From positions 22,358,162 through 22,422,161 of the forward strand of contig OU612067.1 in the NCBI GenBank assembly GCA_914767715.1: a stretch of 64,000 nucleotides of DNA. The letters are read 5' to 3'. A program made the translations under genes and the position numbers. Position 1 is the stretch's first letter. Each line of letters opens with the position of its first letter. A model generated the notes under the pieces. It was given only the letters and a program-made list of their open reading frames with translations, searched no databases and was not told where the DNA came from. The stretch comes from Membranipora membranacea (Eukaryota > Bryozoa > Gymnolaemata > Cheilostomatida > Membraniporidae). This document shows positions 31,458-54,239 of the stretch, piece by piece.

Positions 31458-34400
31458 GTAATCCAGCCCGGACTTTACAAGGGATCACCCTTAAATTAAA
31501 GTAGATGAGAAAAGGAGATATTGTGTGTTAATGATTGCCCTAAAAACTTTTGTGAGTTTGGGAATCATCTCCTGCCAGTTTTAATTTTTACCCATATTTA
31601 CCTCAACTTTTAGGTCTGAGACTAACCAGAAATCGAAAGTCCATTTATGCAAGTTTTGAATAACTATAGAGTCAAATTGTAGGTTTATCCATATTTGTAA
31701 ATTTTTGCCTTTTTCAAATACATCTCTTGAAAAAAGAGTACGCAGTTCATGGCGGGTAAGTGGAGATTGCCAATACCATAACAGGCGATGACTGAAGTGT
31801 GGTTGCAAGACTTGGTAGCCCATTTGTAACTATGAGAAGGACACACCTTAGTTGTAAGAATGCAAAAACATGCACACCACCTTCACATACTTGGATATTG
31901 TGGCTGAGGGTCTCCTTACAACAACAAATTGCACCAGAGTATACAATAAACTTACTCAGCAAATCTACCTTCAAATAAAACAAGTATGCGTTTAGACAGA
32001 AGTGAAATATTTGTGCTATTTTAAACACAAGGAAATAGTAAGGCCTTGTGCTTGAAGTTGCACAAATGTTGCAACATGTTTATCTCAATATAACCTAAGT
32101 TGTATTGTTTGTAACACTAATCATGTTGTGGGTGTAAACTTAGCCAACTTCCTTTTTATAAAGCAGATATGCAGTAAACATTCAATGTATAAACATAAAT
32201 GAACATGATCATGACCCGGAAAATTGGATAATTGGTCAGGTTTGAATATGGGCTTTAGGTTATCACCAAGTTTGATTGAGATTGATTTATAAATAAGAGG
32301 CTTTAGATACATATAATGGCAAAGGAAATACATGTGCTTTTGCTTTTAAATCTAAGATCTTTAAGCTTAGATCGAAAGGAAAATACCCCCCCCCCCCCCA
32401 AAAAAAAAAACCAAAAAATAAGTTATATTTGCTTGAAATATCATTTGAGTTTCAGTGTTGCACCAAATAGACTTGAGCGTTCATAAAGCAAAGTCAAACT
32501 GACTACGCTGTAGGTGAAGCATATATTCCTAGGTAACTCAGTTGAGCATCCATTTCTCAAGATCGTTTTGGCCAACAAGTATATTTATGCTAACTTACCT
32601 ATACATTGATGTATTTTTTTTGTAGTTTCACAGCTGTACATAAGACAGAAGTGATTAAGAACACACTGGACCCGACATGGAGGGAGATGATGGTCAGTGT
32701 AGGTACTCTTTGTAATGGAGATAAAGCTAGGACACTCAAAGTAGAATGTTACGACTGGGATAGTGACGGAAGGTGTGTTAATTTGTCTGAGATTACTTTA
32801 ATTTGTCAATCAAATGTATAATTTAGATCTGCAAGTACAGAAAAAATGTTTCAATGCTGCAATATATCATACAGCATCATCATAGTAAATTACAAAATTA
32901 CGGTATTTGCTAAAACAGAGAGATGTTTTCTAACATCAGTTTACATACACTTGCCATATTTGCTTCGTTATTTTGGTTTGTTTAAATCTACACTTTGGTC
33001 AGAAATTCGTAGTTTCCTCTTCCAGATTATAGTTATTGAGTCAGAATTAATAGTTTGCCTATCTATATGGTGATCAGAGTATGTTGCCTTGAAAGATTTC
33101 AGCGACAAGTTTAGAGTTGATATTGTTTTTTTATGACAAAATATCCGATTGAACATCTTCATCCTACTTGTTGTTTGCGTCACAGAGCGCTATAGGTAAA
33201 TACTTTGTAAAAAATCCATCTTAACAACACCCTCCAGTTAAAGTGCAAAAAAACCGCTAATAGACTGCTTCTGAGCGTAAATTTGAGCCTACTATCGGAG
33301 CTGTCCTCTCTCCATTTAGCTGATCAATTGTTTCCCTTGCTTTATAAATTCTCAGTATGATAAATTTAGAAACTTATAATCCGCTTAGTGTTTTGTATGT
33401 GGTTTTCTTATCAAATTTGCAGCAGGTAATAGCATCTTATCATTTACTCTTGATAAGTTCAACCTGTATGTATGGGCCTCATTAAGAGCGAAGAATCAGT
33501 AAGTCTAGTATGCTTCTGCCATCGTTCTGCACTCTGCAGTTTCAACTGATTGACCCTCATATTAATATCTTAATACAATAAGATGAGAGACTGATAACCT
33601 CGTCGCAAAACTCGAATAGAGTATACCTTGAACTGATTGTAGGTGCTGCGGGTAGTTTGGTTTTATGTTTGAATTAAGATTGGCTCTTGATGCCCTTCAT
33701 TTAGCTGCCTTTCTTAGGGCAAGCACAGTACAAACAAGTGGTATTACAGTAGGAGGGGGGAGGGGGGAGGGGGTTGGACGGTGTGTAAGAGTCTGGGGGG
33801 CTCAGACTACCATTGAGTATAAGCAATAGCAAAATATCAAATATGGCTACATGTTATTAATTTCCTTCCTGTGTGTAAATTTTGATGGATCTACAATTCC
33901 ACATATTGTGAGGACACTGGACTACTCTGTAATAAGTTAACTTGTACTTCCATCCTTCTGCCCTATCTCAATATGTATCACTAATCTATGTATTGTATTT
34001 ATCTCCTTCAGCCACGACTTGATAGGCGTTTTCCTCACCAACGTCAACGAGTTAGCGAAGCACAGTGTAAACTTTGAACTTGTGAACCCGAAGAAGACTA
34101 AGAAGAAGAAATATGTCAACTCCGGTCTGGTAAGATTTCAGCATCCATATTAGTCTAAAAACGGGCAGCATAAGGTCATCAGTTCTACAAATCATATACA
34201 AACTGGTTCAGGAATATTTAATTCACGAGCACGCATAATGATCAGCTACAATCTTAACAGATATGACTATATGGATGTAGGCTCAAGTGCTCAGACAGCT
34301 CCATTGCGAGTTAGTGTCATTACATTATCAACCATCCAATTGCCCTCAAGAGTTGTCCGCTCCTTGTTTTGCGTGGTTGATAATATAATGCCACTAACTC

Positions 34401-37400
34401 ACAACGGAGCCGTCTGAGCACTTAGACTATATCCATATAGTCATGTCTGTTTAAGATTGTAGCTGATCATTATGCAGGCTTAAGAATTAAATATTATTCA
34501 AGTAGGTTGTTATGCGTGCTCCTGAATTACATATTCCAGAACTAGTTGGTATGGGATTTGTAGAACTGTTGAGCTGATGCTGTCAGTTTGGTGTCGATTT
34601 TCATACACGCCTGCAGACAATGTCCCCTCTTGCTCGCTATTTTCCGACGCTTACCCGGGATAAAATTTTAAATTGATCGCAAAGTCTTCTTCCGGTTCAA
34701 CCATCTACTCGGTTTGACTTTGACACAACAAGATGACACAAAAATGCCTATTCGATGCCATCAGTAAATCTTACATAATATGTTTGATATGGAGTACGGA
34801 CCTTACTGACTATTACCGAGTATGGGCCTTACTGAACATTACCGTCATATCGCTGTATCCTCAATAAGATATTATGTCCATGTCATTGAGGATGCAGCAA
34901 CCTGACGGTAATATTATAGATATTGAACTAACACTGGTTGTGTAACATTGAGAGAGTTTTTGATATTTGTCAGTGAAAATTTCATCGCCAACCTCTATTT
35001 TCTCTTCCATTCTGCTTGTAGATACATGTAGACCATCCCAGGGTAGAGAAAAGTTACACATTTTTAGACTACATACAATCTGGGTAAGATAATCATACTA
35101 CTGGCTCCATCCCAACATCAAATATATAATCATTGTGGTGTACCCAAAGACCAAAACATGTTATAGTCAGGCAGTAACTTATGATAAAGTTGTGTCAGAT
35201 TTACATGATAAAAATATGCTCTACTTGACATGAATTACTGATGGTGGAAAAAGTGCCTCCCATAAGGGAAGGTAACTCTCACTCTCTGCATTATGAGGTC
35301 ACTATGATCAGGATATGCAATACAAGAGTGGATCATCATTTTACATAATTTGTTATAAAATGCGTTGTTATATGGAGATTTGTAATAATCCATCATATGT
35401 GTTAAACAAGTTGGAGTTATGCACTCAGTTGGAATTTTTTCTGTTGCTGAAACCTGAGGGTCTGTTTTACCAAGAATTTTTACAAGTGTAATTCACACAA
35501 GCTTGTTTTTCGGATACACGGGCTTGTCAATCAAGAAACCAAATTATACCTAGGGTGGTAAGGCAACCCTCCTGTCTTCTGTACAAAAGATGAGAAGATA
35601 TTTTTTTCATATCTATGTGGTGATCGCAATTAAATGTCATCTTTCTTACTTACAAAATAATTGTGGCGAATATTATGTCATATATTTCAAAAGGCTCCAA
35701 AGAAGCTCAAAACGCTGAAGTTTCATTATAACCGTTGAGCTTTGCTTTGAAGTTATGACTCGGCCTTGATATAATCGCCCTCCCCTATATAATAAATAGA
35801 GAATTCGCAAACTCTTGAAGTTGTCCTCTCCCAACATATGAAATCATCACGTTTTACGTTGTTTGTCACTTTGGACACCATCTTGATTCGGAGTAGCATC
35901 CTCCTGACAATGGGCAAGGCGACCTCATATGGATGGTTTCCCGGAATCAAGAATTTGTTGCTTTTTGAATCCTGTGACATCCCTGGGGAGATTTCGAAAC
36001 CTCTCTGCTTAATTGAGATTGACCCTTCTGAAACACAAGGACAACATCTGTAATTCAGCAGATAATCATTGCTATTATACTCATCACTTGTTTTACATTT
36101 TCAGAGTTCAGCTCAATTTCACAGTGGCGATAGATTTCACCGGCTCTATCGGTAATCCATCGAGTCCTCAGTCGTTACATTACCTCGGTGCTCAGATGAA
36201 CCAGTATGTTACGGCCCTGAGCTCGGTTGGTACGATAGTACAAGATTATGACAGGTATGAATCTAACATGACTTATTGTCTTATTGGTATGAGCTGAATA
36301 GCTGCTTGGGAGTGATATCCCTTCTGTTTCATCCCACCCGATCTTGTGTTTTTTTTATTGTACAAGTTGGATAGCTGGTTGGTCAACCATCTAGCTGACT
36401 GATGTTGATATCCCGTCAAAAACTCATCACCCGTCGCACTTTGGAAACCACAGTTTTTTAAAGAGTTGTTTCAGCTTGCTCGTGTTGCTAACAGTGGCTT
36501 TCTGTTAGCGGTTGATAAAGAAATGCTGATAACAACAACCCTGGCAAAGTTTATGCACTATTAGTCCAGAAGCCACCAGACTCTAGCATTCAGTTCAATA
36601 ATTCCTCTTTGGATGGACAATCTGTTTGTGTAGTGTACATGAATGGGCTTAGCTGTGTTCAAAACCACAAAATTTACACCTCTCAGTGGTCACAGTTGTG
36701 AGCTGGGGCCCCTTTTAGAGACCGAAATTGATAACATAAGAAAACTTTCAAATACAATGGGAAATCCTAGTGATCACGTGAGAAAACCTCTATTATTGCA
36801 ATAGAAAACCAAGGTCACATGGTATTGTTTACATAACAATGTGTTAGAAAATGGAGGCATGTGTGCTGCATTGGTATGAGGACAGCAATGAAACTGTAAC
36901 TCCTGTCACCCAGAGAAGATGGACTACTATAGTAGAATGTGCAAGGCACTGGCAAGAGGTTGAGGATCATAAATATAAGGATCTGGCAGCTCAAATATAT
37001 CAAAACATTGACTATAGAGAAGATATTGTCTGTCACAAAAAATGTGTTGATCGCTTTTGTAACAAATAAGTTCTGAGTAGAGCTCAGAAACGGAAAGCTG
37101 ATGAAGATAGCCAGGTAAGTGACTATGAAACAACTAAGGAGTAAAATGATTGCCTAATTAAAGGGAGGAACCGCATGTTTATCACTCCTTGCTAAATCTA
37201 CTGTTTGTTTTGATCGATTTGATGAAGAAAAGAAATCCTCATGTCTTATCTATGGTGCTGTGTGTTTGAATTTTGTTTCTACATCTATCATAAGCAAAGT
37301 ACTTTTCCTATATCTATGAGAGAGTTTGATGAAGCAAGGGGCAATTAATACGAATGTATCTTTCACTGTTCACACCACATTTGTGTAGTGAATCACCCTC

Positions 37401-53947: not shown

Positions 53948-54239
53948 GTATGAATCTAACATGACTTATTGTCTAATTGGTATGAGCTGACTAGCTGCTT
54001 GGGACAGATACACCTTCTGTTTCATCCCACCCGATCTTGTGTTTTTTTTATTGTATGAGTTGGATATCTGGTTGGTCAACCATCTAGCTGACTGATGTTG
54101 ATATCCCGTCAATAACTCATCACCCGTCGCACTTTGGAAAGAGTTGTTTTAGCTTGCTCGTGTTGCTAACAGTGGCTTTCTGTTAGGGGTTGATAAAGAA
54201 ATGCTGATAACAACGACCCTGGCAAAGTTTATGCACTAT
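49920..54239 (+). CDS. CPNE: Copine unit D: exons 7-10, intact
   Basis: Exons 50430-50576, 51865-51982, 52735-52796 and 53798-53947. All acceptors and donors are canonical and all frames open. Differences from the others are few ([11 protein letters not shown] in exon 7). This is the unit nearest to where the rest of the vWA domain should follow, but no downstream vWA exon is seen. Confidence 0.88.
51606..51662. mobile_element. Small GC-rich element (unit D, intron 7)
   Basis: 57 bp; left flank ACCATTG, right flank ATCATTG (one change). Orthologous to 42648-42702. Confidence 0.7.
52603..52649. mobile_element. 47-bp GC-rich element (unit D, intron 8)
   Basis: Same insertion as 43791-43837 with one substitution; left flank GTTGTGT, right flank changed to GTTTTAC. 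Confidence 0.75.

What the first reader, a model, noticed from the sequence alone, without database searches (positions are those of the whole stretch)
32377..54239. Copine exons 7-10 amplified four times in phase-compatible tandem units
Each unit carries the same four exons totalling 477 nt (159 codons), entering in phase 2 and leaving in phase 2. Exon 6 ends in the same phase as exon 10, so any unit can follow exon 6 or another unit without a frame change. The gene could make proteins with swapped or repeated C2B-end/vWA-start segments. Copines elsewhere have one copy. Units B-D are close to one another and A is more distant.
Basis: partly seen in the sequence, partly recalled or inferred. 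Interest (0 to 1): 0.88.

Follow-up and report, generated by a model that had tools for sequence, protein, structure and literature searches.

The report
Decaying fourfold duplication inside copine gene
A stretch of an animal copine gene has been copied four times in a row, but two of the four copies are broken, so it looks like an ordinary accidental duplication in decay rather than a device for making many proteins.

Summary
The tandem array is real. Four head-to-tail copies of a 4.2-4.7 kb block (array 32379-54275) each carry copine exons 7-10. Exon 6 and every unit end in phase 2. Units B-D are closer to each other (introns 3.0-4.3% different) than to A (6.9-7.6%).

The key inference fails. 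Unit C exon 8 is 106 nt, not 118, and reads into an in-frame TGA. Unit B exon 7 has lost its splice acceptor (GG for AG), and B's exons change at a near-neutral rate. Only A and D are intact. Of 15 ordered unit chains, 3 (A, D, AD) are open with canonical splice sites. The block starts inside C2B and stops about 45 residues into vWA, so it is not a domain module.

Exons for the rest of vWA were not found in the window; an aldo-keto reductase gene lies at 60.1-63.7 kb on the other strand. The copine is thus incomplete here.

A-D exons show purifying selection (6 nonsynonymous, 12 synonymous differences), mostly in exons 7-8, so both lineages were once functional, as units of one gene or as separate copine paralogues. 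Best reading: an intragenic tandem duplication, partly homogenised, now decaying. A/D alternative cassettes remain possible. Species unknown; no RNA or whole-genome data could be reached.

The parts
28130..31457 (+). Copine exons 1-6: 28130-28203, 28587-28674, 29247-29350, 30233-30272, 30825-30933, 31325-31457; 548 nt, open, ends in phase 2
   Evidence: Pfam C2, two stretches; BONZAI 1 alignment
32379..36561 (+). Unit A (main part; its last ~39 nt lie at 40965-41003 beyond the insert). Exons 7-10 at 32626-32772, 34012-34129, 35022-35083, 36105-36254; intact
36562..40964 (+). 4,403-bp transposon-like insert splitting unit A: terminal inverted repeats TAGTCCAGAAG../..CTTCTGGACTA, TAT on both sides; ORFs 38908-39582 and 39569-40216 without Pfam match
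41004..45670 (+). Unit B. Exons 41473-41619, 42905-43022, 43923-43984, 44995-45144; exon 7 acceptor GG instead of AG; near-neutral exon change
45671..49955 (+). Unit C. Exons 46117-46263, 47550-47655, 48380-48441, 49464-49613; exon 8 has 7-nt and 5-nt deletions and an in-frame TGA
49956..54275 (+). Unit D. Exons 50430-50576, 51865-51982, 52735-52796, 53798-53947; intact
54276..64000 (.). Downstream flank: no copine exon 11 or later found; aldo-keto reductase pieces on the minus strand from 63663 to 60077

Best explanation
This is an intragenic tandem segmental duplication in decay, not an isoform-generating device. A 4.2-4.7 kb block of a copine gene (end of intron 6, exons 7-10, start of intron 10) was joined head to tail at a junction with about 2 bp of microhomology (GA, read by eye). 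It was then amplified to four copies and partly homogenised by unequal crossing-over or gene conversion (inferred from mosaic divergence). Unit B has since lost the exon 7 acceptor and unit C has acquired a frameshift and stop (both shown). Because the other splice sites are canonical, default splicing through the array should include C exon 8 and hit the TGA, giving a truncated or NMD-degraded message (inferred). A full protein could come only from transcripts that use A and/or D and avoid the C stop. With the rest of vWA not found in the window, the locus may make no full copine at all (inferred).
For: Four aligned units with the same junction. C exon 8 stop and B exon 7 acceptor loss. B-private exon changes are 9 nonsynonymous: 3 synonymous, against about 3.7:1 sites (near neutral), while D-private are 1:3 and A-private 4:6. 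B-D exons differ as much as introns, 4.2% v 3.0%, p=0.16. Mosaic divergence of A: 98 of 776 columns private on the left, 63 of 2807 on the right, max chi2 146 v null maximum 21 in 1000 shuffles. Block ends fall inside C2B and vWA. No exon 11+ found in the window.
Against: A-D exons show purifying selection (6N:12S, p=4e-5; exons 7-8 alone 3N:10S, p=2e-5), so a second unit was coding for a long time. C exons, apart from the lesions, also look conserved (A-C 2.8% v 7.6% in introns, p=5e-5), so C died recently. B exons 9-10 v D are 3N:5S (p=0.016), not neutral. Exons 1-6, A and D are undamaged. Some C transcripts could stay open by a weak in-frame donor inside C exon 8 (47605) or by skipping C exons 8-9. 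Missing 3' exons may lie beyond 64 kb. No RNA data.
Confidence: 0.6

Rival explanations
1. A and D are alternative cassettes: splicing joins exon 6 to unit A or unit D, then to exon 11, giving two copine isoforms; B and C are dead copies that are skipped, or serve as a poison cassette that lowers expression.
For: A and D are open with canonical sites. A-D exons are under purifying selection. They differ at L211F, K216Q, L271V, P277A, I307N and N309K (its printed index is one lower), the last two right after the D302-T304-S306 stretch that I take for the MIDAS.
Against: Avoiding the C stop requires exons with canonical sites to be ignored. The differences are few. Constraint could predate the array. 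No docking/selector RNA structure was looked for.
Confidence: 0.17
2. Paralogue fusion: A descends from one copine gene and the B-D ancestor from a neighbouring copine gene. An illegitimate exchange between intron 10 of one and intron 6 of the other produced exons 1-10 followed by 7-10, later amplified. The selection signal dates from when they were separate genes. This concerns origin and is compatible with the decay reading.
For: A v B-D in intron 7 differs by 10-23% (32773-33387), against 0-6% among B-D there. Exons 7-8 pS 0.19 v pN 0.014 for A-D. Copine genes form tandem clusters in the bivalve Panopea generosa: 22 genes, 8 on one chromosome (PMC10729735, passages).
Against: No second copine gene was found in this 64 kb window. 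Just before exon 7 A differs less from C and D (3 of 40 and 2 of 40 columns; 7 of 31 from B, whose tract is damaged), so conversion tracts confuse dating. Species unknown.
Confidence: 0.25
3. Assembly artefact in copy number or context: two divergent haplotypes of a shorter array were concatenated, or the copine 5' part was misjoined to the aldo-keto reductase region.
For: B-D differ by only 3.0-4.3% in introns with several indels, which would fit allelic divergence in a polymorphic animal (that comparison is recalled). The 3' part of the copine is not found.
Against: The same internal junction is seen between A (after the insert) and B, B and C, and C and D; the junction itself is not allelic, so at least one real tandem duplication exists. 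The longest exact match between any two units is 250 bp, resolvable by long reads.
Confidence: 0.15
4. Chained protein: all units are spliced in series, giving a copine with repeated C2B-end/vWA-start segments.
For: Phases allow A-D (500 residues open up to exon 10).
Against: ABCD and every chain with C contains a stop; chains with B need a GG acceptor. The repeated segment is two part-domains.
Confidence: 0.03

Closest known systems
Tandem exon duplications / mutually exclusive exons (PMC9013439, abstract and outline; PMC9741552, search listing and one passage)
   Same: Homologous exons in head-to-tail order inside one gene, phase-compatible.
   Different: Here a block of four exons with introns is copied, two of four copies are disabled, and no mutually exclusive use is shown.
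Tandem phase-2 LRR exons of brown algal ROCO genes (PMC11378527, passages)
   Same: Phase-2 tandem exon units inside a gene.
   Different: There each exon is one LRR repeat that can be added to the protein; here the block cuts two domains and includes dead copies.
Tandem expansion of copine genes in geoduck clam (PMC10729735, passages)
   Same: Copine sequence amplified in tandem; some copies reported as short, which its authors say may be assembly or prediction error.
   Different: That is whole-gene duplication; this is duplication within a gene.
Plant copine BONZAI 1 (PDB 6kxk/6kxu)
   Same: Aligns over residues 16-341 of the exons 1-6 plus A product, E 2.4e-56; C2A-C2B-vWA order.
   Different: One copy of the exon 7-10 segment, and the protein continues past this point.

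Membership tests
Copine family | Two C2 domains | tested here: met
   Pfam PF00168, two stretches
Copine family | C-terminal vWA/copine domain | tested here: inconclusive
   Start of vWA aligns with BONZAI 1 up to residue 341; Pfam copine domain not reported; exons for the rest not found in the window
Mutually exclusive exon cluster | Homologous exons or blocks in tandem | tested here: met
Mutually exclusive exon cluster | Every copy open, same length and phase | tested here: not met
   Met for A, B, D; C is 465 nt with a stop
Mutually exclusive exon cluster | Functional splice sites for every copy | tested here: not met
   B exon 7 acceptor is GG; 15 of 16 acceptors are AG and 16 of 16 donors GT
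Mutually exclusive exon cluster | One and only one copy in each transcript | not testable with these tools
   No RNA reads available
Intragenic tandem segmental duplication | Head-to-tail copies with a shared junction, introns included, each copy alignable along its length | tested here: met
Intragenic tandem segmental duplication | Exchange between copies (mosaic divergence); common but not required | tested here: met

The most novel reading that the evidence does not exclude
Units A and D are both used as alternative four-exon cassettes that retune the C2B calcium loop region and the vWA metal site, while C acts as a poison cassette whose inclusion sends the message to decay, making the array a splicing-controlled dial of copine level and type.
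Probability: 0.08. Interest if true: 0.55.

Novelty: new member of a known kind. Interest (0 to 1): 0.22.

Why it matters
If only decay, it is a clear snapshot of how intragenic tandem duplications form, exchange sequence and die, and a warning that phase compatibility alone does not show usable cassettes. If A and D are both expressed, it would be an early stage of a multi-exon alternative cassette in a conserved calcium-sensor gene. Either way, the loss or great distance of the remaining vWA exons should be checked before this gene is called functional.

Tried and rejected
Chaining of all units: rejected because of the C stop and B acceptor. Rescue of B exon 7 by another acceptor (80 nt upstream and the exon scanned): the nearest AG frameshifts; in-frame AGs that leave the frame open (41529 and further) remove over a third of the exon. 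Rescue of C exon 8: one in-frame open donor near the stop (47605), weak by eye, would delete 17 codons of the C exon; two others (47566, 47581) lie further upstream. I kept these as possibilities, not as evidence.

Strong constraint on exon 7 from the ~18% divergence of neighbouring intron sequence was not taken at face value: before the exon A and D differ at only 2 of 40 columns, so exon 7 may sit in a converted patch. The dN/dS contrast does not depend on this. Its p values compare counts with Nei-Gojobori site numbers only, without a transition/transversion correction.

Rfam search of the window at gathering thresholds: 0 matches. Pfam on four ORFs (two in the insert, two at 1-3 kb): 0 of 4 with a match at E<=0.5. 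Pfam on four downstream minus-strand pieces: 1 of 4. Viral contigs: 55 pattern stretches, 0 confirmed relatives. Paper search 'copine'+'tandem'+'exon duplication': 0 papers in the held library. That no such copine array is in print rests only on listings (15 of 25 papers shown; 12 of 44; 4 of 4; 10 of 14).

Not done: structure prediction, RNA docking-site search, trained splice-site scoring, any answered whole-genome search.
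Full report
WHAT IS THERE. The window is animal-like DNA of unidentified species (GC 33-43% in 2-kb bins). A recalled copine probe located 4 of exons 1-6 and 14 of 16 exon copies in the array (matches with E below 5; the misses are exons 1 and 4, and exon 9 of A and B). Splice sites were then set by reading frame. Exons 1-6 give 548 nt, open, ending in phase 2. The product with unit A matches Pfam C2 in two stretches and the plant copine BONZAI 1 over residues 16-341, E 2.4e-56.

THE ARRAY. Four head-to-tail units are certain (14 of 20 shown repeat families have four copies, 30 families in all). 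The three internal junctions read ..CCTGAAAAAGTGA/AAATACCCC.., while the sequence before A and after D departs on either side of a shared GA (by eye), a signature of illegitimate joining (inference). Unit A's end is split by a 4,403-bp insert with terminal inverted repeats and TAT on both sides (36562-40964).

WHY THE UNITS ARE NOT INTERCHANGEABLE. Exon lengths are 147/118/62/150 in A, B and D but 147/106/62/150 in C. C exon 8 lacks 7 nt inside and 5 nt at its donor. The sum, 12, hides the damage in a phase count, but the frame between them runs into TGA at residue 254. In B the exon 7 acceptor is GG, with a 9-nt deletion in the tract before it; it is the only non-AG acceptor among 16. Of 15 ordered chains, 7 are open and 3 of these (A, D, AD) use only canonical sites. 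Skipping B exon 7 alone would keep frame, and C could be kept open by a weak inner donor or by skipping exons 8-9, so rescue is possible but not evidenced.

RATES. Exon v intron difference: A-D 3.8 v 7.1% (p=0.006), A-C 2.8 v 7.6% (p=5e-5), A-B 5.7 v 6.9% (p=0.38), C-D 2.6 v 3.8% (p=0.23), B-D 4.2 v 3.0% (p=0.16), B-C 4.7 v 4.3% (p=0.63). Substitutions against neutral site numbers: A-D 6N:12S, p=4e-5; A-B 15N:12S, p=0.007; B-D 13N:7S, p=0.16. Private changes among A, B and D: A 4N:6S, B 9N:3S, D 1N:3S; three three-way codons left out, C not used, and A's changes are not polarised. So B has drifted nearly freely while A and D were constrained. By halves, A-D exons 7-8 are 3N:10S and exons 9-10 are 3N:2S. 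One result goes against a simple neutral B: exons 9-10 of B-D are 3N:5S, p=0.016. C's low exon divergence suggests its damage is recent.

HISTORY. A-private differences are 98 of 776 columns left of 33387 and 63 of 2807 to the right; shuffled maximum chi2 20.7 in 1000 trials v 145.9 observed. Intron 7 of A differs 10-23% from B-D up to 33387, then 1-14% through the rest of introns 7 and 8, and about 2-5% in introns 9 and 10. Shared indels cut across each other: 127 nt in A and B only, 54 nt in B and D only. This is what unequal crossing-over or conversion leaves. Whether the old divergence arose inside one gene or between two copine genes cannot be told here.

SURROUNDINGS. No copine exon 11 was found after the array. 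From 63663 down to 60077 there are six matches to a recalled aldo-keto reductase on the minus strand, collinear with small overlaps, E 3e-11 to 0.07 (two of the six are weak at 0.07; two further matches elsewhere at E 4.5 are chance-like). One of four pieces matches PF00248 at E 2e-4, 21 bits, below the curated 24. Probes for the rest of vWA, both strands, gave nothing better than E 0.62 downstream and 1.0 upstream, and motif scans reported for the + strand gave nothing convincing. A copine intron of more than 10 kb around another gene, a truncation, or a misjoin would each explain this. Short divergent exons could also have been missed, as exons 1 and 4 were by the same kind of probe.

DOMAIN SENSE. 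The unit covers residues 183-341. The Pfam C2 match is 156-250, so the unit begins inside C2B; it ends about 45 residues after the vWA starts (vWA start by eye). All units keep D302-T304-S306; A has I307 where B-D have N (numbering of the A product; one search's printed index is one lower). PMC10968396 (passages) gives the mammalian copine MIDAS as D, T, S, T, D; placing the first three here is by eye.

VERDICT. An ordinary kind of event, an intragenic tandem duplication, seen at an instructive stage. Evidence for protein-diversifying use is absent and two of four copies are disabled. The chance that A and D serve as real alternatives is kept open because of their constraint.

Noticed in passing
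window 60077-63663 (-): Aldo-keto reductase gene in about six exon pieces on the minus strand, downstream of the copine array, in the region where later copine exons were sought and not found.
   Followed up: partly
window 36562-40964: 4.4-kb DNA-transposon-like element with terminal inverted repeats and TAT flanks, inserted a few dozen bases before the A/B unit junction; its two longer ORFs have no Pfam match.
   Followed up: partly
window 34159-34549 and the matching place in unit B: Palindromic (inverted-repeat) stretch in intron 8, longer in A and B; C and D lack 127 nt of it. A second palindromic stretch of about 80 nt lies near 34835-34915.
   Followed up: partly
window 45349-45532: Unit B has an extra internal duplication of about 185 nt of intron 10 that the other units lack.
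   Followed up: no
window 59188-59291 and 59592-59695: Two 104-nt copies, 91% alike, of a dispersed-repeat-like sequence.
   Followed up: no
window 24500-25700 (-): Possible exons of a coiled-coil splicing-regulator-like protein (NSRP1/CCDC55-like, by recall only) on the minus strand upstream of the copine.
   Followed up: no
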